41,914 nucleotides of DNA from a virus. The stretch spans positions 1 to 41,914 of the IMG/VR virus record IMGVR_UViG_3300030329_003902; one strand, 5' to 3'. Of the stretch, positions 2,917-25,238 are shown piece after piece (the stretch's first letter is position 1; every line of letters starts with the position of its first letter). A model generated the notes under the pieces. That model was given only the letters and a program-made list of their open reading frames with translations. It had not been told where the DNA came from and ran no database searches. The position numbers and the translations under genes were made by a program.

Positions 2917-3258
2917 ATGACGCAAGATAATAGAGAAAGGATTGTTAAATTAGAAGAGGAGTTACTGCAAGCTAGAAGTAGGGTTGTCGATTTAGAAGCT
3001 AAAACCAAAACAACATTAACTGGTGGTCAGTTTCTTACGATAGTTTTAATTGGTCCGCTTTTTCTTGCCTTCGTAACTTTAGGTGTATTGATTGTATGGA
3101 AGACTACAAGTAAGCCGAGTGAGATTGCTCCACATCTAGATATAATATTAGTGGCATTTGCTATATTCGCAAATCCAGTTACCGCAGCAGCGAGTGTTAT
3201 TGTCAGCTTAATGAGTGATGAGATTAAGTCAAAGATAAAAGATGGAGGTAATGAATAA
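2917..3258 (+). CDS. Two-span membrane protein with N-terminal coiled coil
   Basis: 113 residues. Residues 1-35 form a charged coiled coil (ERIVKLEEELLQARSRVVDL). Hydrophobic spans lie at about 39-61 and 74-98, followed by a Lys-rich tail. The ATG at 2917 is chosen for GAGGG 5 bases upstream; an in-frame GTG at 2896 is possible. It is the first rightward gene and overlaps the next by one base (TAATG). Spans and coiled coil resemble accessory lysis or envelope proteins, but at this position the role is open. Confidence 0.7.
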   Translation: MTQDNRERIVKLEEELLQARSRVVDLEAKTKTTLTGGQFLTIVLIGPLFLAFVTLGVLIVWKTTSKPSEIAPHLDIILVAFAIFANPVTAAASVIVSLMSDEIKSKIKDGGNE

Positions 3259-4136
3259 TGAAAGATCGAAAGTTTTCTATTCCTAGTTTGAAGTTTAGTT
3301 TAGGGGCATTTGGAAGATTCAAATTACCTTCAGCGTCTAAATTAAAATTGCCTTTTCCTACAGGAATTTATCTTGGTGGAGGCAAACTTATAGTTGTTAG
3401 CCTGAGTTTCGTTGCCCTTGGATTTCTCGCATCCATGTTTCTGCTCTTGAATACAGGAGAGCAAGAGATAACCTTTCCGATGTTAGGTGCTAGTTACGAA
3501 GCTCCTTCTATGGTGGGAAGCAATATAACGGATGCTGAGTTTCCTATGGATAGGAGCCAGACGTTGCAGATTAATATGCCAGCTAGTTTAAGGTTGGATG
3601 TGGTTTCCTTTAAGAATATCAATCTAGGAAAGAGTGGATTAACGGATGCTTTTCAGATTGCAGGAACAAGTACAAGTGATGTTATTACTATTGAGACTGT
3701 GACTATCAAAAACTCTTCCTTCCCTACTATGGATTGGGCAAACGGTGACATATTTAAAATTAATGCTACAAGTTCTGTTATTGCTGCTGGTCACACATTT
3801 AGTCCTACAATGGCAAGTTCAACCAATGACGTTGTAATAGGTAGCGGTCGTGGAGCAACAAGCTATATAGCAGAGGATATGACCGTTGACAGGATTTTAC
3901 TTCTGCAAAGTACAACAGGTGGAGATGTCGTTATCGAGAATCTTATCCTTGATAATGTAAACGCGTGGACAGGAGCGTTTAACGCAGATTATTTTGAAAT
4001 AGGTACTCTCACTCTTGAGAATGTCAGGATAGGTGATGATGGTGATATTAATAGTGCTGATCTTGTAATTAACTCTAGCGTGAAAGTTAATACCGTTAAC
4101 GATGGAGTCCAAGAAGAGCCAATCTTTATAAGGTAA
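3258..4136 (+). CDS. Signal-anchored beta-rich protein
   Basis: 292 residues. A very basic amphipathic N-terminus (1-40, repeated K-L-P and F-S-L patterns) precedes one membrane span (about 43-65). A Ser/Thr/Asn/Val-rich ectodomain of about 225 residues follows, with short beta-strand repeats such as VITIETVTI, VVIENLILDNV and IGTLTLENVRI, suggesting a beta-helix or beta-sandwich. The positive-inside rule would place the beta domain outside the cell membrane. It is coupled to 2917-3258. It could alter the host surface or be a virion component; no family is recognised. Confidence 0.7.
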   Translation: MKDRKFSIPSLKFSLGAFGRFKLPSASKLKLPFPTGIYLGGGKLIVVSLSFVALGFLASMFLLLNTGEQEITFPMLGASYEAPSMVGSNITDAEFPMDRSQTLQINMPASLRLDVVSFKNINLGKSGLTDAFQIAGTSTSDVITIETVTIKNSSFPTMDWANGDIFKINATSSVIAAGHTFSPTMASSTNDVVIGSGRGATSYIAEDMTVDRILLLQSTTGGDVVIENLILDNVNAWTGAFNADYFEIGTLTLENVRIGDDGDINSADLVINSSVKVNTVNDGVQEEPIFIR

Positions 4137-4138
4137 CT

Positions 4139-4792
4139 ATGAACGAAACAACTATAGCTGAACTAGAAGAACATTATGGTCAACCTCAAATCTCTGAGGA
4201 TGGAGTAGCTATCTGTGGCAGAGGTAAGAAGTTAAATGGTATCTGTAGATTTGATGCAGGTTGGGGAACAGATCACGTTGGATATGGTCCATGCAAGCAT
4301 CACGATACAGAAGGTAAGATGGAGTTAACCTCTGTCGATAGAGGAAGAGTTGTTTATTCTAACATAGCCACAAACTCTCGCCTTAAAGAACATTTACATC
4401 AAGAGGAAAAGAGAACTGAGTTAGATAACCTTGACGGAGAGATTGTTCTCCTTAGAGCAATGCTGAAGATTCTTGTTGAGAAGTATGGTGAGAAGGTTCT
4501 TGATGATGAGACTTTAGACTTACTGGAGTTTGGTACTGACTTTGAAACTATTGACCTTCAAACAAAGTCTCTCGTTAATCTGGTAGATAAGATTAGTACG
4601 AGCATTAAACGAAAGTACGAAGTTCTGCAAATAGCAGGAAGTACGATAACCAGAGAGAAAGTCCGTAACTATATGAACCAGATACAGTTGGCGTTAGGTC
4701 AAACCCTGAGAAACGAATGTCAGCATTGCCATAAATTGCATAACCAAAGAGATAATGCGATAGAAGCAATTAGAAGAGTTGGAGATATCTAG
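4139..4792 (+). CDS. Zinc-knuckle protein, candidate terminase small subunit
   Basis: 217 residues. Residues about 26-54 carry CGRGKKLNGICRF...GWGTDHVGYGPCKHH, a C-x8-C-x16-C-x2-H pattern seen in many phage proteins encoded just ahead of the large terminase. A long helical region (85-200) follows, then a second pair ECQHCHKLH near the C-terminus. Position before the nuclease and TerL, plus a DNA-binding-like knuckle and helical oligomerisation region, fit a small terminase. The assignment rests on motif and context only. Confidence 0.55.
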   Translation: MNETTIAELEEHYGQPQISEDGVAICGRGKKLNGICRFDAGWGTDHVGYGPCKHHDTEGKMELTSVDRGRVVYSNIATNSRLKEHLHQEEKRTELDNLDGEIVLLRAMLKILVEKYGEKVLDDETLDLLEFGTDFETIDLQTKSLVNLVDKISTSIKRKYEVLQIAGSTITREKVRNYMNQIQLALGQTLRNECQHCHKLHNQRDNAIEAIRRVGDI

Positions 4793-4797
4793 AAGGA

Positions 4798-4977
4798 TTG
4801 CATTGGCTGAAAGGATATAGACAATCTAAGAAACAAGGAAGATGTCGTATCTGTGGATCAGTAACTTATATGAAAATGAATGATGGAAAATACCTTTGTT
4901 CAGGTTTTGGGCTTGGAGGACTCAATCCATCCTCTGATGCGTTTTGCTTCAACCTGTACAGGAAAAGGAAGGCTTAG
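4798..4977 (+). CDS. Small zinc-ribbon protein
   Basis: Up to 59 residues, with CRIC early and two later Cys (YLCSG and FCFNL), an arrangement suiting a single zinc ribbon; the rest is basic. No ATG opens the frame: TTG at 4798 has AGAAGG too close, CTG at 4807 has the same site 10 bases upstream, and the first ATG (4870) would lose the CxxC. The start is therefore uncertain. The stop abuts the nuclease start at 4978, and the frame fills a gap in a tightly packed operon. Confidence 0.5.
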   Translation: MHWLKGYRQSKKQGRCRICGSVTYMKMNDGKYLCSGFGLGGLNPSSDAFCFNLYRKRKA

Positions 4978-5460
4978 ATGTTTGAATATAAAGTAAAGGT
5001 TACTAGGGTTGTGGATGGAGATACAGTTGATGTAGATATTGATCTTGGTTTTAAGATATGGCTTAGAGGGGAAAGAGTCAGGTTGATGGGTATAGATACT
5101 CCTGAGAGTAGAACGAGTAATAAGTGGGAGAAGATTCTTGGAAAGAAGAGTAAGGAGAGGTTGAAGGAACTTGTTACCCAGAATAAGGGCAAGGTTACCC
5201 TTCAGACTACAAAAGAAGGTAAAGGTAAGTTCGGAAGGATACTTGGATACCTTAACTCAGAAAGCGATGATCGCTCCTTTAACCAGATACTTGTAGACGA
5301 AGGTCACGCAAGACCTTACTTTGGTGGAAGTAAAGGCGAGATGGGTGAATGGGCAAAAGAAGAAGGGGAATGTAACTGTAAGGGAAAGAAGGCTTTTAGC
5401 AAATGTACTGGTAACTGGTTTCGTTGGACAAACAATGGATATGAGGTTCTTGAATCCTAA
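4978..5460 (+). CDS. Staphylococcal-nuclease-like (TNase) endonuclease
   Basis: 160 residues of the SNase OB-fold family. VVDGDTVDVDIDLGF (11-25) is the first strand region. RVRLMGIDTPES (33-44) holds the R and E of the active site, and GKFGRILGYL (83-92) the second Arg. By count these fall at R35, E43 and R87, the numbers used for mature S. aureus nuclease. FNQILVDEGHARPY is the usual C-terminal helix. No signal peptide, so it acts inside the cell, perhaps in packaging-linked processing or host DNA breakdown. It overlaps TerL-N by one base. Confidence 0.9.
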   Translation: MFEYKVKVTRVVDGDTVDVDIDLGFKIWLRGERVRLMGIDTPESRTSNKWEKILGKKSKERLKELVTQNKGKVTLQTTKEGKGKFGRILGYLNSESDDRSFNQILVDEGHARPYFGGSKGEMGEWAKEEGECNCKGKKAFSKCTGNWFRWTNNGYEVLES

Positions 5461-6251
5461 TGCCTAGAAAAGTAGCTGACGTAACATCAATCGGTATTCT
5501 TTCTGGAATGAGAGAAAGATCTATTTCAGAAGAACGTGCATATGATCACCCTGCTTACTTCCATGAATATGTGTTTAATCAGAAGTTACCTCCATTTCAA
5601 TGGGAGATCATGGAAACACTAATGGAAGGAGATAGCAATCCTGATAATAGTGACGTAAACCCACTTCTTATCCTTGCTCCACGTAATCATGGTAAAACTG
5701 CTCTGGCAGGAGAAAGTTTTCCTCTATGGAAAGTTGGAAGGAATAGGTTAGAGTTAGTTCAGATTATTAGTTCTGTTATATCACTAGCTGTTGAACGTAT
5801 GGGGAAGATTGAAAGTTGTATCCGATTCAACGAAAGGTACAGGCAAATGTTCGGAAACCTTTATCCAGACAGTCCAGACTTTACTTGGAAAACGGACAGG
5901 TTCGAAGTAGTGAGGGATCGGACTCAAGCGTGGGAGAGTGGAGATATTCAACGAGACGCAACATTCGCTGCTTTTGGCATTACCACAAGCGTAGAAGGTG
6001 GACGAGCAACCCTTCAAGTATATGATGACGTTGTTAGCTTTGAGAATAGTCAGAGCGATACTAATAGAAGTAACATCAGCAGTAAGTTCTGGATGAGTTT
6101 TGATCCAATGCTTATGCCTAAAGGTCAACAGATATTCCTTGGAACAAGATTCCATTACGATGATCTCTACGCTGAACTCATACCTATATTTGATACAGAG
6201 AGACTTTATACCGATTTATATCCAACAGTTCTAGAGAGTTCACATGTTTAA
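5460..6251 (+). CDS. Large terminase, N-terminal ATPase part (split gene)
   Basis: 263 residues, the ATPase half of TerL. LILAPRNHGKTALAG (70-84) is the adenine/Walker A region with the R/K-G-K-T pattern of phage terminases. LQVYDDVV (185-192) is the Walker B region. GTRFHYDDLY (228-237) matches the end of the ATPase domain (motif III region). It stops after LESSHV, where uninterrupted TerL proteins run on into the nuclease domain. The nuclease half is at 7150-8097 in another frame. The two polypeptides probably assemble on the portal as one motor. See the finding on the split. Confidence 0.9.
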   Translation: MPRKVADVTSIGILSGMRERSISEERAYDHPAYFHEYVFNQKLPPFQWEIMETLMEGDSNPDNSDVNPLLILAPRNHGKTALAGESFPLWKVGRNRLELVQIISSVISLAVERMGKIESCIRFNERYRQMFGNLYPDSPDFTWKTDRFEVVRDRTQAWESGDIQRDATFAAFGITTSVEGGRATLQVYDDVVSFENSQSDTNRSNISSKFWMSFDPMLMPKGQQIFLGTRFHYDDLYAELIPIFDTERLYTDLYPTVLESSHV

Positions 6252-6363
6252 GAAATCATTACTTGGCATACTGGTAGCAAGCGTTACAGCGTTTGTAGTT
6301 TATAAATATACTGACAAAGTGTATTGGGATGAGGAACTGGAAAGTATCCCTTGGGAGAAGTGA
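6244..6363 (+). CDS. Tiny single-span membrane ORF
   Basis: 39 residues: MFKKSLLGILVASVTAFVVY, then a charged tail ending ELESIPWEK. The hydrophobic stretch of about 16 residues after two lysines could be a signal anchor. The ATG overlaps the TerL-N stop by 8 bases, with GAGAG upstream. It lies in the DNA that separates the two terminase halves. It may be a real small membrane protein or a chance frame. Confidence 0.4.
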   Translation: MFKKSLLGILVASVTAFVVYKYTDKVYWDEELESIPWEK

Positions 6364-6373
6364 ATAACTGGAT

Positions 6374-7150
6374 ATGAAACATATAGTTAGTTTATCTGGT
6401 GGCACTTCTTCAGCTGTAGCAGCTAATCGTGTAATTAATCGTTACGGTAAAGAGAATGTCATACTTTGGTTTGCTGATACTCTCTGGGAAGATGAGGATT
6501 TATACAGATTTCTTGAAGACCTTGAATTATTATGGGATATTCCAATTGTTAGATCATCAGATGGAAGAACTCCTTTGGAAGTTGCTTACGATGATGAAAT
6601 CATTCCTAATAGTAGAGTTGCTACCTGCTCTAAGGCTTTAAAGATTATTCCCTTTAGATATTTCCTTGAAACTGTTGATAGACCTGTAACCGTACATCTT
6701 GGTTTAGATTGGACAGAGGAGCATAGAACGGTTTCACCTAAACGAGAGTATGAGAAAATAGAGGGAGTAACTGTAGACTTTCCATTGCTTTGGAAACCAT
6801 ACGCTAATCCTCCTCATAGGATGGAAACGGAGTCATGGGGAATTAAGACTCCACGACTTTATGATATGGGATTCAGTCATAATAATTGTGGTGGTAGATG
6901 TGTAAGGCAAGGTCAATCTACTTGGGAAAGACTTAAAACTTTCTTTCCTGAGAGATTCAATGAAGTTCGTGATTGGGAAGAAGATCAAATAGAACGATTA
7001 CCACATTTGAAAGGTAGAGGGATAATCAAAAGCGGAGATAAGGGTAAGACGTTAAAAGAGTATGAGAATCAATATATGAAAGGACAACAAGGTGTATTAG
7101 AGATGTTTCCAAGTATGGAGGATACATACGCTTGTGTGTGTGATTACTAA
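6374..7150 (+). CDS. PAPS-reductase-like PP-loop protein
   Basis: 258 residues of the phosphoadenosine-phosphosulphate reductase / N-type ATP-pyrophosphatase fold. SGGTSSA (8-14) is the PP-loop that binds ATP or an adenylyl substrate. Cysteines at 85 (ATCSKALK), 172 and 176 (NNCGGRC), and 254 and 256 (ACVCDY) are spaced as if for an iron-sulphur cluster or sulphur relay. Phage relatives are common but their substrate is generally unknown. Sulphation, thiolation of tRNA, and DNA modification are all possible. It lies between the terminase halves and its stop overlaps the next ATG (TAATG), so TerL-C translation depends on it. Confidence 0.8.
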   Translation: MKHIVSLSGGTSSAVAANRVINRYGKENVILWFADTLWEDEDLYRFLEDLELLWDIPIVRSSDGRTPLEVAYDDEIIPNSRVATCSKALKIIPFRYFLETVDRPVTVHLGLDWTEEHRTVSPKREYEKIEGVTVDFPLLWKPYANPPHRMETESWGIKTPRLYDMGFSHNNCGGRCVRQGQSTWERLKTFFPERFNEVRDWEEDQIERLPHLKGRGIIKSGDKGKTLKEYENQYMKGQQGVLEMFPSMEDTYACVCDY

Positions 7151-8097
7151 TGGGAGTTAGGTTATATCAGGCGATTCAACCAGATGGAAGCGTTCTATGG
7201 GAAGCAGAACGTCCATTAGAGTGGTTGGAGAAGAAACGCAGAGCAATGCCACCTTCTCTATTTAATGCTCAATATCAAAATGATCCTAGCGGAATGAAGG
7301 GAGTGAAGTTTGATGTAGAGTGGCTACACTTCTATGATGATGCTACTGTACCACCTATAAGAAAATTAATCGGAATACAGGGCGGTGATCCTGCTACTTC
7401 TGAAGGAGAAAGTGCGAATTACTTCGGGCATTGCACAGCAGGTAAAGATCCTGATACTGGAATAGTATATGTTCTAGATTTTGCGTTTGGAAAGATAACA
7501 GCACCAAGACACCTCGAGTTCCTTCATGCTCAATACACTACTTGGAAAAGTAGGGGGTTAAATATCTCTAAGGTTATTCTAGAGACAAATGGTCCTCAAC
7601 AAGCTACAACTCAACATCTCATTAATCAAACTAGAAATGATTCTAGAGGTGCTATGCCAATAGAAACAATAATTCCTAGAGGTTCTAAAGAACAGAGATA
7701 CGATGCAATTATTCCTTTTATTGCTAATGGTAGTGTCAGGTTTAAAGGTGAAAGAAGAGGGGACGAGTTGTTTATGAGTCCAGAGAATGGATTCAAAGAG
7801 TTTCAACAGGAATATTCGTCTTTCCCAAGAGGTGGCAGAGATGATATCCTTGACGCACTATGGATAGCTGTTCACCAGTTAACTTCATCTGTAGAAGCTG
7901 TAGCTATTAGTGAGATTGAAGCTACATTGTCAATGGCTGAGATTGAGGCTAACGAAGAAGGTTATGAGGGGGAGCAACGTAAACGCTATCTAGTCAATAG
8001 GTTAAGTGAGTTAAATAAAGAAGAGGAAGAGACTGCTAGGGATAGAGTGTTGAGTGGAACAGGTAGAAGTAGTTTATTCCACAGAGGATTGAGGTAA
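7150..8097 (+). CDS. Large terminase, C-terminal nuclease part (split gene)
   Basis: 315 residues. The first 50 (RLYQAIQPDGSVLWEAERP, then FNAQYQNDPS) match the linker between ATPase and nuclease domains of ordinary TerL proteins. The RNase-H-like nuclease follows: GGDPA with D80, VILETNG with E145, and GGRDDILDAL with D231/D232 are the three acidic metal-binding positions. It lacks its own Shine-Dalgarno and starts in a TAATG overlap, so it is translationally coupled to the PP-loop gene. It is not in frame with TerL-N, which excludes simple read-through. Confidence 0.88.
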   Translation: MGVRLYQAIQPDGSVLWEAERPLEWLEKKRRAMPPSLFNAQYQNDPSGMKGVKFDVEWLHFYDDATVPPIRKLIGIQGGDPATSEGESANYFGHCTAGKDPDTGIVYVLDFAFGKITAPRHLEFLHAQYTTWKSRGLNISKVILETNGPQQATTQHLINQTRNDSRGAMPIETIIPRGSKEQRYDAIIPFIANGSVRFKGERRGDELFMSPENGFKEFQQEYSSFPRGGRDDILDALWIAVHQLTSSVEAVAISEIEATLSMAEIEANEEGYEGEQRKRYLVNRLSELNKEEEETARDRVLSGTGRSSLFHRGLR

Positions 8098-8101
8098 AGA
8101 T

Positions 8102-9655
8102 ATGAGTGCTATAAGTAGAGTGAAAGAATCTTGGCAAGCATTACGAGGTAATACGAGTCAAGAAGCTATTAGCTATATTGGATCACCCGAACCTGATGAA
8201 CACTTGTGGAAGCCTATGGGAGCGAATAGGAAAGAGAAGAATCTTCCCTCAATAACTCAACAACATGCAATTGACTATGCTCACTACTTCTATAAGAGTA
8301 ATCCTATCGCAAAGCGTATTATTGATTTGACTGCTGAGTATGTGGTTGGAGATGGAATTACTTATGTAGCAGAAGATCGTAATGTTCAAGATATTTTAGA
8401 TTCACATTGGACTGACCCTACTAATAACTGGACAATCAATCAGTTTTCCAGAGTTAGAGACTTAGGACTCACAGGTGAACTATGTATTCCTGTTTACGTT
8501 AATGAACAGAATGGACATGTAACTCTAGGTAACATAGATACAGCTATGATTGAGTCTGTTGTTGAAAATCCTGAGAATACGATGAAACAACAGTTAATTA
8601 TATTAAGGAAGTTCCCTAAAGAAGATTACAGAAGGGCTTATCGGATTATTGATGTAAGTTCTGCTCCAGTAGGAACTAAAGAATACGGAAGATATGTAGG
8701 TCTTAATACGAGTGCGGTTTCTGGTGCTGATTTTACAAAAGATGACATTATCGAGCCTACAGGATCAGGCTTGAAGTATAAGTGTAAAGTAGTTGGTGCT
8801 TGTTTCTTCTTCACTATAAATAATCCTATGACAGCAAACAGAGGTTGGAGTGATCTCTTACCAGACATGGATTGGATTGATGCTCATGATCAATTCCTAT
8901 TTAGTTCAGTTGAGAAAGCAATCGAAAGTTCTAAGTACGTTCTAGATGTCACTCTTACTGGAAAAAACGAACAACAGATAAGAGAGTGGTTGAGGAATCA
9001 AAGGAGTTTAAAACCTGGAGAGCGTTTTGCTCATAACGAGAATGTTAGTCAAGAGTTCAAGACTCCAGACTTAAAATTAGAAGATAGTGCTAGTTTAGCT
9101 TCTGTTTTAAAGAACCACGTTCTTGCAGGTGCAGGACTTCCACCGATTTGGTTTGCTGAATCCTTAACTTCAAGAGCATCTGCTCCAGAGATGACAGAAC
9201 CTGCTTACAGGCATCTCAAGATGAGGCAGAAGTTTATTGCGTATATCATGACTAGAATCTTTAGATTTGTTCTTGATCAAGCAATAATACATGGAAGGTT
9301 AAGGCAAGATAGTAGGTTTAGTGATACTTCATTAGCTACTATTGAATCTGCTTCATTCTACTTGCGTATGCCAGAAGTTTCCTTTAGAGATCAGAGGGCT
9401 AACGCAATAGCGGTGAGAAGTATAAGTACAGCGTTGAAGGATGCTGTAGGTAATGGCTTTATTGAAACAGACGAAGCCTCACGAATATTTACACGCTATC
9501 TCGGTTTAAGTGGAATTGACGCAGGTAAGAATGAACCGCACGAAAAACGTGGCATGTATGATGTTGATTCAACATTAAAAGATTTGTTCCAAGTAACAAC
9601 CGAAAAGCATGATAATGGGTATACATATTATCCAAGTCGTGATAGTTTTAAATAA
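8102..9655 (+). CDS. Portal protein
   Basis: 517 residues, normal length for an HK97/lambda-type portal. HYFYKSNPIAKRIIDLTAEYVVGDGI (about 61-86) is the typical N-terminal portal signature. The mid-region has GWSDLLPDMDWIDAHDQFL, and the C-terminal half ASVLKNHVLAGAGLPPIWFAE, where the helix-rich core ends. It forms the dodecameric DNA channel at one capsid vertex. It lies just after TerL and before the capsid gene, the standard order. Confidence 0.9.
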   Translation: MSAISRVKESWQALRGNTSQEAISYIGSPEPDEHLWKPMGANRKEKNLPSITQQHAIDYAHYFYKSNPIAKRIIDLTAEYVVGDGITYVAEDRNVQDILDSHWTDPTNNWTINQFSRVRDLGLTGELCIPVYVNEQNGHVTLGNIDTAMIESVVENPENTMKQQLIILRKFPKEDYRRAYRIIDVSSAPVGTKEYGRYVGLNTSAVSGADFTKDDIIEPTGSGLKYKCKVVGACFFFTINNPMTANRGWSDLLPDMDWIDAHDQFLFSSVEKAIESSKYVLDVTLTGKNEQQIREWLRNQRSLKPGERFAHNENVSQEFKTPDLKLEDSASLASVLKNHVLAGAGLPPIWFAESLTSRASAPEMTEPAYRHLKMRQKFIAYIMTRIFRFVLDQAIIHGRLRQDSRFSDTSLATIESASFYLRMPEVSFRDQRANAIAVRSISTALKDAVGNGFIETDEASRIFTRYLGLSGIDAGKNEPHEKRGMYDVDSTLKDLFQVTTEKHDNGYTYYPSRDSFK

Positions 9656-9658
9656 AAG

Positions 9659-9688
9659 TTGACAGGGTTAATAGTTTCGTCTTAGAAT
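9659..9688 (+). promoter_or_regulatory. Sigma70-like promoter before the capsid gene
   Basis: TTGACA at 9659-9664, an 18-base spacer, and TAGAAT at 9683-9688. The expected transcript start is about 10-15 bases before the capsid ATG at 9707. A dedicated promoter, paired with the terminator at 12461, would make a high-copy transcript for the capsid and decoration genes. Confidence 0.6.
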
Positions 9689-9706
9689 CGCTTGTAGGTA
9701 TTTATA

Positions 9707-11953
9707 ATGCCAGAAAAATTAGAACAATGTGTTATACGATTAATGGATGACCCAGATTTCAAACCGAAAGATGGGGAAGATAGGAAGTCTGCTGCTTATG
9801 CAGTATGTACGGCACAAATAGAGAAGTCCAACGATGTACAAAAAGAAGAAAAAGAAATGCTAGAAAGCAACCAAGTTATTAAACGAATGTTTAGCTTTGA
9901 AGCTAGTCCACTACAGGAAAACGGTAGCGATTGGCGAGTTCGCATTATTAACTCAGGTACATCGAAAAATAATAGAACTTATCCGAAAGATATATTACAT
10001 AGAGATAAGAATGTCTTTGAAGGCGTTCCAGTTCATGCAGGAAGCGGTCAAGATCATTCCCCAAATGAACGTGGAGTTAAAAGCATTGTTGGTTTCATCA
10101 AGAATGTTGATGCTGTTCCAGAAGGTTTAGATGCAACCTTTCATGTATCTGATCCTATACTAAGAGATACCCTTTTAGACTTACATCAAGAAGGTGTACT
10201 TTCTAATGTAGTTGGGTTTAGTATAGTAGCTGAAGGAAGATGGCAAAGAGATTTAGGTTCAAATACAGAAACAGCTTTACAGTTAGTTAGGGCTGATTCT
10301 GTTGATTTAGTTAGAGAGCCAGCAGCAGGGGGAAAGTTTCTCGCTGTAGCCGAATCGGAAGAAGTAATCGAAGCAATCCCCATACAGGAGGAAAATGTAA
10401 TGGATATGACGGAAGAAAAGTTGCAGGAACTTCTTGCAAGTGCCTCTTCTAAAGCTGTCAAAGAGTATATTGACTCTCAAGACACGAAAGAAGTAGAGGT
10501 CACAGCAGAGGCAACTGCTGAAGTAGCAGAGGTAAAAGACGAGACTTCTGATAAAGTCTCTGAGGCACTTACTCAATTAAATGCCACTCTTCTCACATCA
10601 GCACTTACCAACGCTTCCTTGCCAGAAATAGCAGAGCAGAGAATTCGCACTCAATTTGAGGGTAAGAATTTCGATGGCGATGCTGTTCAGAAGGCAATAG
10701 CAGGGGAGAAAGATTATCTTGCTTCTCTTGCTAAAGTCGCTGTTGAGAACGTAACTAAAGAAAGTGGTAAAGTCACTACCGATGAAGGTGACAAGAAGTT
10801 AGCACGAATAGATGCTAGTTTCACCGCATCTAGAGTAATGACCACAGAAAGCGGAGAAAAGGTAAAGGGCTACCGAACCTTTACTGAAGCCTACTGTGAT
10901 TGGACAGGAAAGAACCCTCTAGAGATTGGAAGGGAAGAAGTTTGGGAGTCTTGGGTAAATGGTTCTAAAGGATACGCGTCTTGGAGAGAAGAGTCTGTTG
11001 GCAGACTTTACACAGAAGCTCTTACCACCTCTAACTGGGGTGAAGTAAGTGCAGACAGGATGCACAAAGCACTTATCAGGAACTATGCTGATCTTCCTCA
11101 ATATAACGATTGGAGAAAGGTTGCTAAAGTTATAAGCGTCAATGATTACCAAGCACACAGAGATATAAAGATCGGTGGGTTCGGTGATTTGGCTGTAGTT
11201 GCAGAGCGAGGTACTTATCCAGACCTGACAATGCCAGCAGACGAGGAAACAACAGTCACCATGCAGAAGCGTGGTGGAATAGCATCGCAAATTACACGTG
11301 AGATGATACTCAACGATAATATTGGTGCTATCTCTGAAATTCCTAGAGAGTTAGCCAGAGCAGCTGCTAGAACTCTTTATAAAGCTGTAATGGATCAACT
11401 TGCTGAAGGTGACACTAATACATATGGTCCTGATTCAACTGCTATCTTCGCAGGTGGTCATAACAACAATGGATCAACAGCGTTGTCACTTTCTGGATTA
11501 GATATTGCTAATAAGGGTATGAGAGATCAGACCAAATATGGCAGTACAAATGATATTCTTGGAGCAGCTAACAAACCTCGTTACCTCGTAGTTCCAAACG
11601 ATCTTGAGGGTCTAGCCAATAGGTTAGTAAGTCCTTCTGCTCAAGTTATTACACAGTTAACTGCTGATACTGATACCGATCAGGATGTCAGGAGATTTGC
11701 AGGAGCAATGGAAGTAATAGTATGTGACTACTGGTCAGATACAAATGAATACTTCTTGGTTGCAGACCCAGCCCAGAGTGCAGGTATAGTAGTTGCCTTC
11801 TTAAACGGTAACGAAGAGCCAGAACTCTTTATACAACAAGATGATACGGTCGGAGAAACTTTCACGATGGATGTGCAGAACATTAAAGTTCGACAAGAGT
11901 TTGCTACTACAGTTGCAGACTACCGAGCAATGTACCGCCAGAACCCATCCTAA
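9707..11953 (+). CDS. Fused prohead protease, scaffold and major capsid protein
   Basis: 748 residues. Residues 1-40 carry LEQCVIRLMDDPDF and SAAYAVCTAQ, a module common at the start of phage head proteins. Residues 60-215 look like a gp21/U9-type prohead protease (SKNNRTYP; H117 in QDHS; S172 in VVGFSI; SVDLVREPA). Residues 232-350 are an acidic coiled coil, probably scaffold. Residues about 360-748 resemble the Mu gpT-like HK97-fold capsid family (RGTYPDLTMP, KRGGIASQITREM, QNIKVRQEF). The protease would release and degrade the scaffold during assembly. A strong internal start at 10400 suggests a second product. Confidence 0.85.
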   Translation: MPEKLEQCVIRLMDDPDFKPKDGEDRKSAAYAVCTAQIEKSNDVQKEEKEMLESNQVIKRMFSFEASPLQENGSDWRVRIINSGTSKNNRTYPKDILHRDKNVFEGVPVHAGSGQDHSPNERGVKSIVGFIKNVDAVPEGLDATFHVSDPILRDTLLDLHQEGVLSNVVGFSIVAEGRWQRDLGSNTETALQLVRADSVDLVREPAAGGKFLAVAESEEVIEAIPIQEENVMDMTEEKLQELLASASSKAVKEYIDSQDTKEVEVTAEATAEVAEVKDETSDKVSEALTQLNATLLTSALTNASLPEIAEQRIRTQFEGKNFDGDAVQKAIAGEKDYLASLAKVAVENVTKESGKVTTDEGDKKLARIDASFTASRVMTTESGEKVKGYRTFTEAYCDWTGKNPLEIGREEVWESWVNGSKGYASWREESVGRLYTEALTTSNWGEVSADRMHKALIRNYADLPQYNDWRKVAKVISVNDYQAHRDIKIGGFGDLAVVAERGTYPDLTMPADEETTVTMQKRGGIASQITREMILNDNIGAISEIPRELARAAARTLYKAVMDQLAEGDTNTYGPDSTAIFAGGHNNNGSTALSLSGLDIANKGMRDQTKYGSTNDILGAANKPRYLVVPNDLEGLANRLVSPSAQVITQLTADTDTDQDVRRFAGAMEVIVCDYWSDTNEYFLVADPAQSAGIVVAFLNGNEEPELFIQQDDTVGETFTMDVQNIKVRQEFATTVADYRAMYRQNPS
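10386..10402 (+). promoter_or_regulatory. Internal ribosome binding site inside the capsid fusion
   Basis: AGGAGG (10386-10391) lies 8 bases before the in-frame ATG at 10400 (Met232), exactly at the border between the protease domain and the coiled coil. It is better than the site at the gene's own start, where only TAGG is visible. Confidence 0.7.
10400..11953 (+). CDS. Nested scaffold-capsid product (internal start)
   Basis: Predicted 517-residue product from Met232, same frame as the 748-residue fusion. It begins MDMTEEKLQELLASASSKAV and holds the coiled coil and the capsid domain but no protease. An internal start would give much more capsid than protease, solving the dosage problem of a 1:1 fusion in the way lambda C/Nu3 does for scaffold. 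It is inferred from the ribosome site and the domain border. Confidence 0.6.
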   Translation: MDMTEEKLQELLASASSKAVKEYIDSQDTKEVEVTAEATAEVAEVKDETSDKVSEALTQLNATLLTSALTNASLPEIAEQRIRTQFEGKNFDGDAVQKAIAGEKDYLASLAKVAVENVTKESGKVTTDEGDKKLARIDASFTASRVMTTESGEKVKGYRTFTEAYCDWTGKNPLEIGREEVWESWVNGSKGYASWREESVGRLYTEALTTSNWGEVSADRMHKALIRNYADLPQYNDWRKVAKVISVNDYQAHRDIKIGGFGDLAVVAERGTYPDLTMPADEETTVTMQKRGGIASQITREMILNDNIGAISEIPRELARAAARTLYKAVMDQLAEGDTNTYGPDSTAIFAGGHNNNGSTALSLSGLDIANKGMRDQTKYGSTNDILGAANKPRYLVVPNDLEGLANRLVSPSAQVITQLTADTDTDQDVRRFAGAMEVIVCDYWSDTNEYFLVADPAQSAGIVVAFLNGNEEPELFIQQDDTVGETFTMDVQNIKVRQEFATTVADYRAMYRQNPS

Positions 11954-22439: not shown

Positions 22440-25238
22440 ATGGCTATACGACTTGCAAGTAGCGTTGTATCAAATCCAGTTATAGCTACTGGAACTTTAT
22501 CAGTAACTGGTACTGGTCAATTACATCTTGATCCTAGCACTTCTGGTCAAGATGCTAAAACAACTTACTCGCTACAAGATAGCGATAAGTTTGTTATGGG
22601 AATTGATGAGAGTACATCGAATGATGATTTTGTTTTAAGTAGAGGTGGGTCACTTGGAACTAATAATGCTATAAGCGTAGATGGTTCTGATGGAGCAATT
22701 ACTGTTGGCTCCCTTACTATAGATAACATAATAGTTAACGGCACAACTATTGGACATACTTCAGATACAGATTTAATTACTCTAGCTTCTGGAGGAGTTA
22801 CTGTTACTGGAGCCTTAACAGTTGGGGTTGACGATACAGGTCATGATGTTAAATTCTTTGGTGCTACATCTGGTAGGTATATGTTGTGGGATGAAGATCA
22901 GGATTATCTGTTTTTTCCTGATAATGTAAAAGCTGTATTTGGTACTGGTGGTGACCTATCTATATATCACGATAGTAACCATTCATATATATCAGACCAA
23001 GGAACAGGCAATATAGCAATACTTGCAAATGATTTTCAAGTTAATAATGCTGCTAATAACGCAAACATGATAAGTGCTACGCAAGGTGGTGCTGTTGCAC
23101 TTAATCATGACGGTTCTACTAAATTATCAACTCACGCATCAGGCGTAGAGATTACTGGCTCTCTTGAGGTAGCAACCATTGACTATTCTGATGGTGACCT
23201 AGCCATGACGATTGCAGATGGTGGTGGGGTTACGTTTGCTCAAGCCACTACATTTAGCGACGATATCACTCTGTCATCTGGTGGAGCAGGGGCAATACAG
23301 TTTGGGGCAGCAGCAACAATTCAGATACCTGACAACGAATCTAACGCATTAACCATAGAAGAAAGCACTAATGACTATATGTACTTTCAAACAACTAATG
23401 GTAGTGAAAGAGTCCGTTTCAAGCAGGATGTGTATGTTGAAGGAACGACACCAAGAATAGTTATTGGTGACGCAGGAGCAGAGGACTCTTCTCTAGTCTT
23501 TGATGGCAATGCTCAAGACTATTATATCGGCATAGATGACACCAATGACAGGTTCAGCATTGGGACGGGGACTACAGTAGGGAGCGGTCTTGGAATTGCC
23601 ATGAATACTGGTGGTAATGTTTATATTGGAAATGGTGGCAGTTCACCTAATAACTCAACCACGCTAAGAGTTGACGGTGACCAGACAAGCCAGTATCCAA
23701 GAGGATTAGCTGTAGGGCTTGCCACTAATGTTCTGACTATGAATACCGACTCTGGCAACATAAATCATTTACAGGTTTATCCGGGCGAATCTGTTATTAA
23801 TGCCAATCTAACGGCAAGCTCTGTTTATTCAGCATATTTTGCAGAACCAGATATAAACGTATCTGCAACAGGAGCCTCCGTAACGCATGCCGCTACTGTT
23901 TATATTGCTAATGCTCCACATGAAGCTACTAGCAATAATTGGGCTTTCTGGGTAGATTCTGGGGCATCTAGACTTGATGGAAGTCTCACAATAGATGCTA
24001 ATGGTGGATGGGTTTACATGAAAGGTGGGGCTAGTAGCACCAATGCCACAGGAATTGCGTGGACATTCAACACCGCAGACACTCGATATTCTGAAATCCA
24101 GATGGACTACGATACGAGGGCTTCTGTTGGGTTGCTAATTCATTCAGGTTATCCCATAACAATTGACGCAACCACCCAGATTAATTACGACATTTCTGGC
24201 ACGACTTATGCTGAACAAAAAGCAACAATGTTCAGAACTTATACCGATATTTATATTGCTGGAACCACTCCGAGAATCGTTATTGGTGACGCAGGGGCTG
24301 AGGATACCGCTGTGGTCTTTGATGGTAACGTCAAAGATTGGTACATGGCATTGGATGACTCTGCGGATACTCTGGTAATTGGAGAAGGCTATACAGTAGG
24401 TACAACTCCTCGACTCACGATACAACCCTCTGGCTACCACTATTTTGGTATGTCAACATCTGGAGCATGGACTAGTAGTGGTGGTAGTTCGGTAGCCATT
24501 GGGTTTGCTTTAGAAACCGCCATAACAGCCGTAGATGGGGATACGTCTTATCAGGCTCATTTTCTTGCAGGGCATAACGGTGCAGGGTCTATTACCACGC
24601 AGGATAACTCCGAAACTATTGGCGTAGTATCAACGATGTACCTATCTGAACCTGACATTACAAAAGGTTCCGACACGATTACCGCTGCTGCAACGGTATA
24701 CATATCAGGTTATCCAACTGAGGGAGAGGATAATTATTCGCTGTATGTTGGTGCAGGAACTGCAAGATTCAATTCAGGGTTTAATCTTGGAAATTCAAAC
24801 TCTACGAACAATAAAATGGATGATTCCTCTGTAGGTTCTGGCTCGACCACTATGTATATTGGTAACCAAAGTATAACTACCTCCTCCGATATGAGACTAA
24901 AGACAGATATAGTACCTACGAATACTAAGGCTCTTGAATTAGTTGATAAGTTCAATGTTGTTGACTTCGGATGGGACGACCCTACAGATGAGGCAGAGTA
25001 CGATAAAAACTACAGAGGTAAGTACATGGGTATGCTTGCACAGGATACTGTAAAGGTAGCCCCTTGGGTAATCAATGACCAAGGTGGAGGTAGAGACTGT
25101 ACAGAATGTATGGCAGGCTTAGAGTGTGATAGTCATGGGATGTTTACAGTAGAATATCAACACTTAGTTCCCACTTTAATAAAAGCAGTACAGGAATTAA
25201 AACAAGAATTACAGGAGCTTAGAAATGGCAACAGGTGA
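22440..25238 (+). CDS. Tail fibre with C-terminal self-cleaving chaperone (peptidase S74)
   Basis: 932 residues. Repetitive beta-rich shaft: two copies of TTPRIVIGDAGAED (near residues 335 and 608), each followed by a similar block ending in EPDI..., TVYI and a Y/W-V-xx-G-x-R motif, show an internal duplication. The C-terminus (about 812-932) has TSSDMRLKTDI, YRGKYMGMLAQDTVKVAPWV, VEYQHLVPTLIKAVQELKQE, the intramolecular chaperone of endosialidase type. Its Ser before DMRLK is the self-cleavage site. It also has CTECMAGLEC. Likely the receptor-binding fibre. Confidence 0.88.
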   Translation: MAIRLASSVVSNPVIATGTLSVTGTGQLHLDPSTSGQDAKTTYSLQDSDKFVMGIDESTSNDDFVLSRGGSLGTNNAISVDGSDGAITVGSLTIDNIIVNGTTIGHTSDTDLITLASGGVTVTGALTVGVDDTGHDVKFFGATSGRYMLWDEDQDYLFFPDNVKAVFGTGGDLSIYHDSNHSYISDQGTGNIAILANDFQVNNAANNANMISATQGGAVALNHDGSTKLSTHASGVEITGSLEVATIDYSDGDLAMTIADGGGVTFAQATTFSDDITLSSGGAGAIQFGAAATIQIPDNESNALTIEESTNDYMYFQTTNGSERVRFKQDVYVEGTTPRIVIGDAGAEDSSLVFDGNAQDYYIGIDDTNDRFSIGTGTTVGSGLGIAMNTGGNVYIGNGGSSPNNSTTLRVDGDQTSQYPRGLAVGLATNVLTMNTDSGNINHLQVYPGESVINANLTASSVYSAYFAEPDINVSATGASVTHAATVYIANAPHEATSNNWAFWVDSGASRLDGSLTIDANGGWVYMKGGASSTNATGIAWTFNTADTRYSEIQMDYDTRASVGLLIHSGYPITIDATTQINYDISGTTYAEQKATMFRTYTDIYIAGTTPRIVIGDAGAEDTAVVFDGNVKDWYMALDDSADTLVIGEGYTVGTTPRLTIQPSGYHYFGMSTSGAWTSSGGSSVAIGFALETAITAVDGDTSYQAHFLAGHNGAGSITTQDNSETIGVVSTMYLSEPDITKGSDTITAAATVYISGYPTEGEDNYSLYVGAGTARFNSGFNLGNSNSTNNKMDDSSVGSGSTTMYIGNQSITTSSDMRLKTDIVPTNTKALELVDKFNVVDFGWDDPTDEAEYDKNYRGKYMGMLAQDTVKVAPWVINDQGGGRDCTECMAGLECDSHGMFTVEYQHLVPTLIKAVQELKQELQELRNGNR

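What the first reader, a model, noticed from the sequence alone, without database searches (positions are those of the whole stretch)
6244..8097. Large terminase split by a PP-loop (PAPS-reductase-like) gene
The ATPase half (5460-6251) and nuclease half (7150-8097) of one TerL are separate genes in different frames, with about 900 bases between carrying a PAPS-reductase-like gene and a tiny membrane ORF. Seen directly: Walker A/B and GTRFHYDDLY in the first, linker and the D/E/D nuclease residues in the second, and a TAATG overlap that makes nuclease translation depend on the inserted gene. TerL ATPase and nuclease are nearly always one chain. Inference: the motor works as a two-chain enzyme, and the cargo gene is fixed because removing it would uncouple the nuclease. 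A thiol- or nucleotide-modifying enzyme tied to packaging would be new.
Basis: partly seen in the sequence, partly recalled or inferred. Interest (0 to 1): 0.75.

Follow-up and report, generated by a model that had tools for sequence, protein, structure and literature searches.

The report
Naturally split viral DNA-packaging motor
In a small group of uncultured phages of about 42 kb, the DNA-packaging motor protein is made as two separate chains cut at its hinge, a cut that in phage T4 abolishes DNA pumping; the sulfur-enzyme-like gene between the halves is an optional passenger.

Summary
One TerL is encoded as an ATPase gene (5460-6251) and a nuclease gene (7150-8097), which match consecutive parts of a single PHROG terminase profile. 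Eleven further IMG/VR contigs carry the same split at the same place, while 98 of 98 assessable distant relatives are single-chain. Both halves keep every catalytic residue, are under strong purifying selection (dN/dS mostly 0.02-0.13), model as the expected folds, and are the only TerL in the genome. The split therefore looks old, fixed and functional, not an assembly error or a pseudogene.

The slot between the halves holds a tiny membrane gene alone (6 contigs), that gene plus a coiled-coil membrane gene (3), that gene plus the PAPS-reductase-like gene (2, the window included), or nothing (1). In the empty case, which is the window's closest relative, the ATPase stop codon itself forms the TAATG overlap with the nuclease start. 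No intron or intein is detected.

Most likely the motor is a two-chain enzyme held together by non-covalent domain contacts, perhaps aided by a clade-specific ATPase tail (LY[T/S]DLYP). This matters because T4 gp17 cut at the linker loses DNA translocation.

The parts
5460..6251 (+). TerL chain 1: packaging ATPase (Walker A 73-80, Walker B 189-190, GTR motif 228-230), with a clade-specific C-terminal tail ending in LYTDLYP + 8 variable residues
   Evidence: phrog_38 positions 256-463, E 4e-36; NF033889 termin_lrg_T7 N-part; model pLDDT 80 matches PhiV-1 and T4 gp17 ATPase
6244..6363 (+). 39-aa single-TM peptide at the start of the slot; counterparts in 11 of 12 clade members, missing in L001
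   Evidence: the PHROG match is negligible
6374..7150 (+). PP-loop (PAPS-reductase/SspD-like) accessory gene, optional cargo
   Evidence: phrog_424 E 6e-37; PADLOC SspD E 2e-16; Pfam PAPS_reduct below cut-off; in 2 of 12 clade members
7148..7152 (+). TAATG stop/start overlap between slot gene and nuclease
   Evidence: sequence; the same overlap lies directly between ATPase and nuclease in L001
7150..8097 (+). TerL chain 2: linker strand plus RNase H-fold nuclease (D80, E145, D232, D235)
   Evidence: phrog_38 positions 482-731, E 2e-41; model matches pUL15, SPP1 G2P and P22 TerL nuclease domains
4978..5460 (+). SNase-like nuclease gene directly upstream of the ATPase, with TAATG overlap; found in all four related genomes compared
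   Evidence: Pfam SNase E 5e-14; synteny
8102..9655 (+). portal protein, directly downstream of the nuclease
   Evidence: phrog_10963 E 2e-33

Best explanation
This phage lineage encodes its large terminase permanently as two polypeptides, cut in the linker between the ATPase ('engine') and the nuclease/translocation domain. Shown: the genes are separate, the split is common to the whole clade, both are selectively constrained, catalytically complete and the only TerL. Inferred: the chains assemble non-covalently at the portal through the domain interface that single-chain TerLs also use, possibly helped by the extra conserved ATPase tail (LY[T/S]DLYP). ATP-driven movement then passes across that interface without a peptide hinge, and the nuclease chain cuts the DNA. 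The nuclease start always abuts or overlaps the stop of whichever gene lies upstream, so co-translation is kept whatever occupies the slot. The slot is a tolerated landing site for small accessory (moron) genes, and the PAPS-reductase/SspD-like gene is one of these.
For: All 12 members are split at the same point, and they form one clade with 100/100 support. 98 of 98 assessable distant relatives are single-chain. dN/dS is about 0.02-0.13 for both halves. All catalytic residues are invariant. The AlphaFold models match TerL ATPase and TerL nuclease structures. There is no second TerL, including in G008, which has a 77-nt terminal repeat, and in G010, which is circularly permuted against the window. 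Four slot states exist, including an empty one. The split members carry about 15 more junction residues than single-chain TerLs (26+37 against a median of 48); within them LYxDLYP is invariant while its codons vary. No intron is detected.
Against: No experiment or proteome shows that the two chains associate or package DNA. T4 gp17 split at the linker kept ATPase and nuclease activity but lost translocation (PMC3012670), so function needs a compensating feature that is not yet shown. The tail is of low confidence in the isolated model. No close single-chain sister was found, so the origin of the split is not resolved.
Confidence: 0.8

Rival explanations
1. The 898-nt interval is a self-splicing intron (group I or II) whose removal restores a single TerL, as in Bastillevirinae and Jug phages.
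For: TerL genes are known targets of group I introns (PMC11878797, PMC12363816). About 900 nt is a typical intron-plus-ORF size.
Against: No Rfam intron match at gathering threshold, and none among the matches up to E 5. The cargo is not a homing endonuclease. The split persists in L001 with no insert between the genes, and with a 123-nt spacer in L005/7/8/9. The ATPase gene has its own conserved end, and the nuclease its own ATG, in every member.
Confidence: 0.04
2. Assembly chimera or a decayed TerL (pseudogene).
For: The window is a metagenome-derived contig, and no reads were available.
Against: The same split is present in contigs from 9 metagenomes. Both halves have dN/dS mostly well below 0.15. 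The catalytic residues are intact. No other TerL is present.
Confidence: 0.02
3. The chains are joined after synthesis (split intein or trans-splicing), or by frameshift/readthrough, to give one protein.
For: Inteins occur in phage TerL (Mic1, PMC7156551).
Against: Neither half has room for intein sequence: after the ATPase domain only about 18-20 residues remain, and the nuclease starts at its linker strand. The frames are separated by whole genes in most members and by several stops where they share a frame.
Confidence: 0.03
4. The cargo matters: the PAPS-reductase/SspD-like enzyme or the small membrane protein acts in packaging or DNA modification, and sits between the halves for that reason.
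For: The tiny TM ORF is in the slot in 11 of 12 members. The PP-loop protein is similar to SspD.
Against: The PAPS-like gene is in only 2 of 12, and its relatives lie in replication or early regions elsewhere. Another slot gene (coiled-coil) also occurs upstream of the ATPase in L001 and about 2.5 kb upstream in L005/7/9. L001 lacks all slot genes.
Confidence: 0.08

Closest known systems
Single-chain TerL of tailed phages (T4 gp17, T7-type, P22, SPP1 G2P; also herpesvirus pUL15)
   Same: ATPase and RNase H nuclease modules, motifs, folds and gene order (next to portal)
   Different: Here the two modules are separate polypeptides with about 15 extra junction residues
T4 gp17 cut experimentally at its linker (Kanamaru et al. 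2004, as reviewed in PMC3012670)
   Same: Cut at the same place between the same two domains
   Different: The artificial cut lost translocation; the natural split is maintained by selection as the only TerL
terL genes split by group I introns (Bastillevirinae PMC11878797; Jug phages PMC12363816)
   Same: terL coding sequence in fragments with ORFs between
   Different: Those are spliced to one mRNA and one protein; here no intron is found and the split exists without any insert
TerL with inteins (Microcystis phage Mic1, PMC7156551)
   Same: TerL interrupted by extra coding sequence
   Different: Inteins are in frame and excised; here the genes are separate
Other split phage core enzymes (MEP401/402 DNA polymerase in two ORFs around a small ORF, PMC10580990; jumbo-phage RNA polymerase and Pol III-alpha fragments, PMC7824862)
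   Same: A core enzyme encoded as separate chains with a small ORF in the gap
   Different: Different enzymes; for MEP401 an intron was not excluded
Phage PAPS-reductase-like (phrog_424) and SspD/DndC PP-loop proteins
   Same: Sequence family of the cargo gene
   Different: Usual sites in phages are replication/early regions; here it sits between TerL halves

Membership tests
Large terminase (TerL) | Walker A/B ATPase with GTR coupling motif | tested here: met
   Invariant R75, K79, D189, D190, T229, R230 with 13 single-chain relatives; PHROG/NCBIfam matches; fold match
Large terminase (TerL) | RNase H-fold nuclease with acidic catalytic residues | tested here: met
   Invariant D80, E145, D232, D235; fold match
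Large terminase (TerL) | Both domains in one polypeptide | tested here: not met
   Separate ORFs in all 12 members
Large terminase (TerL) | Packages DNA into proheads | not testable with these tools
   Needs biochemistry
Group I/II intron-split terL | Ribozyme core in the intervening sequence | tested here: not met
   No Rfam hit at gathering threshold, none relevant at E up to 5
Group I/II intron-split terL | Splicing restores one open frame | tested here: inconclusive
   No RNA data; L001 has no insert yet is still two genes
Intein-containing TerL | In-frame intein with splicing blocks | tested here: not met
   The halves hold only TerL sequence plus a short tail
Canonical PAPS reductase (CysH) | PP-loop SGGxxS | tested here: met
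   SGGTSS at residues 8-13 of the ORF 6374-7150
Canonical PAPS reductase (CysH) | C-terminal catalytic ECG(I/L)H motif; Pfam gathering score | tested here: not met
   No ECG in the sequence; PF01507 16.2 bits against a 22.5 cut-off
SspD (DNA phosphorothioation) | Sequence match to SspD | tested here: met
   PADLOC SspD E 2e-16
SspD (DNA phosphorothioation) | Encoded with SspA/B/C partners | not tested
   Only this protein was scanned with PADLOC

The most novel reading that the evidence does not exclude
A naturally two-chain viral packaging motor in which the covalent ATPase-nuclease hinge is dispensable because a clade-specific ATPase C-terminal tail (LY[T/S]DLYP) clasps the nuclease chain, so force is passed across a purely non-covalent interface.
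Probability: 0.45. Interest if true: 0.75.

Novelty: new variant of a known kind. Interest (0 to 1): 0.55.

Why it matters
Models of the T4 motor assign force transmission to a flexible hinge joining the ATPase and the nuclease/translocation domain, and an artificial cut there abolishes DNA translocation (PMC3012670). A lineage that lives with this cut would show that the covalent link is not essential. It would also give a ready-made pair of chains for measuring what each ring does, and would show how an essential one-chain machine can become two genes. It is also a practical warning: TerL-based surveys will read these genomes as having truncated terminases. The cargo gene, by contrast, is an ordinary phage moron.

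Tried and rejected
Intron search with Rfam at gathering threshold over the whole window and at E up to 5 over 6000-7400: nothing relevant. Sequence search of both halves against PDB chains: no hits; fold search was needed. Genome-contig scan for prophages: only distant relatives, so no host clue. Promoter/terminator scan of 4000-9700: no more sites than shuffles, so no sign of a separate transcript for the nuclease. Literature searches for a natural two-gene TerL found only intron, intein or unrelated cases. Prochlorococcus phage P-RSP2, listed with 'two hypothetical proteins' under the ATPase match, turned out to have a single TerL. The idea that the split arose from insertion of the PAPS gene was rejected because the split exists in members without it. 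A possible duplication of the linker strand (RLYTDLYP against RLYQAIQP) was noticed but is too short to test.

Full report
What is there. The window is a near-complete tailed-phage genome of 41.9 kb. The packaging region reads: unknown gene 4139-4792, small ORF, SNase-like gene 4978-5460, TerL ATPase 5460-6251, tiny TM ORF 6244-6363, PP-loop (PAPS-reductase-like) gene 6374-7150, TerL nuclease 7150-8097, portal 8102-9655, protease-capsid fusion 9707-11953. The ATPase and nuclease genes match consecutive stretches of one terminase profile, phrog_38 positions 256-463 and 482-731. All catalytic residues are present and invariant in alignments with single-chain relatives. AlphaFold models made from alignments of window and locus sequences give mean pLDDT 80 and 76. 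Foldseek matches the first to PhiV-1 TerL and T4 gp17 ATPase, and the second to herpesvirus pUL15, SPP1 G2P, P22 and cytomegalovirus nuclease domains.

The split belongs to a lineage. A scan of 2.9 million viral contigs found 11 close relatives (73-85% identity in the nuclease, 81-87% in the ATPase). Every one has the two halves as separate genes at the same point. Some are near copies: L004/L011 and L008/L009 have identical TerL, so there are 10 distinct cases counting the window. In a maximum-likelihood tree with 14 single-chain relatives the 12 form one group with 100/100 support. Among distant relatives, 98 of 98 whose contig allowed a decision are single-chain (2 ran off a contig end; some of these contigs may overlap). 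No single-chain sister closer than about 33% identity was found, so how the split arose is open.

The halves are functional genes by selection. Pairwise dN/dS is about 0.02-0.13 for both halves wherever synonymous sites are not saturated. The genomes have no other TerL: a phrog_38 search of nine records found only the two halves. Two of these genomes look complete or nearly so. G008 (42,362 bp) has a 77-nt direct terminal repeat. G010 (41,675 bp) is circularly permuted against the window with the same gene content, and the two ends of the window map next to each other in it.

The cargo is optional. Four states of the slot exist. The window and L002 have the TM ORF plus the PAPS-like gene. L003, L004 and L011 have the TM ORF plus a coiled-coil membrane gene of about 110 aa. 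L005-L010 have the TM ORF only. L001 has nothing, and there the ATPase gene's own TAA overlaps the nuclease ATG (GCTTAATGG). L001 is the window's nearest relative in the TerL tree (96/96) and L002 is next (95/92), so the PAPS-like gene was either lost from L001's line or gained twice. In both cases the nuclease stays coupled to whichever gene lies in front of it. The coiled-coil gene lies directly upstream of the ATPase in L001 and about 2.5 kb upstream in L005/L007/L009, so these small genes move around the terminase region. The PAPS-like gene was not found in the other clade records searched (some are fragments). In other phages its relatives lie in replication or early regions. TAATG overlaps occur at 6 of 25 plus-strand junctions of the window, so this one needs no special explanation.

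Not an intron, intein, frameshift or artefact. Rfam finds no ribozyme. The split is present without any insert (L001). After the ATPase domain only a short tail remains, which leaves no room for an intein. The frames are separated by whole genes or by several stops. The split recurs in nine metagenomes.

How it probably works (inference). In T4, gp17's domains are joined by a flexible hinge and share a large charged and hydrophobic interface; splitting gp17 at the linker kept ATPase and nuclease activity but abolished translocation (PMC3012670). The natural two-chain form must therefore hold together non-covalently. A candidate compensating feature is the junction. Between the GTR motif and the FNAQYQN motif, single-chain relatives have a median of 48 residues, while the split version has 26 (ATPase tail) plus 37 (nuclease start), about 15 more. 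The tail contains LY[T/S]DLYP, whose amino acids are invariant apart from T/S while the codons vary, followed by a variable end. This pattern fits a docking peptide, but the isolated model gives the tail low confidence, and two-chain modelling was not available here.

Novelty. Fragmented terL genes are known through group I introns (Bastillevirinae PMC11878797; Jug phages PMC12363816) and inteins (Mic1 PMC7156551), and other phage enzymes are split (PMC10580990, PMC7824862). The open-access literature searched here gave no stable two-gene TerL; that library lacks most subscription papers. Two PHROG families (4758, 5573) of about 245 aa match only one half each; their members could not be inspected, so earlier examples in reference phages are not excluded. 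It is scored as a new variant of a known kind, of moderate to good interest because it makes the hinge question testable.

Noticed in passing
window 9707-11953: Prohead protease and major capsid protein appear fused in one 748-aa ORF (C-terminal Phage_capsid_4 E 8e-39; NF045541 protease/MCP fusion E 3e-50, below its cut-off).
   Followed up: partly
window 4978-5460: A staphylococcal-nuclease-like gene overlaps the ATPase start (TAATG) and keeps this place in the four related genomes compared, though in L001 a coiled-coil gene lies between them; it may be part of the packaging module.
   Followed up: partly
L001:4788-5198, L003:2882-3214, L005:656-1234: A coiled-coil membrane protein gene occupies three different places around the terminase genes in related genomes.
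   Followed up: partly
window 3258-4136: A 292-aa protein of unknown function has a 70% homologue in G001 and a 60% homologue in another phage contig (L036) that also carries a PAPS-like gene, but none in G004, G008 or G010.
   Followed up: no
window 22440-25238: Probable tail fibre: only about the first 10% is shared with relatives and the rest differs, consistent with receptor-binding variation.
   Followed up: no
window 1-41914: Genome organisation is circularly permuted between contigs (G010 against the window) and G008 has a 77-nt terminal repeat, so complete genomes are about 42 kb.
   Followed up: partly
window 5460-6251 and 7150-8097: PHROG families 4758 (243 positions) and 5573 (250 positions) are 'terminase large subunit' profiles that cover only the ATPase or only the nuclease half; other split or intron-broken TerLs may be hidden there.
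   Followed up: no
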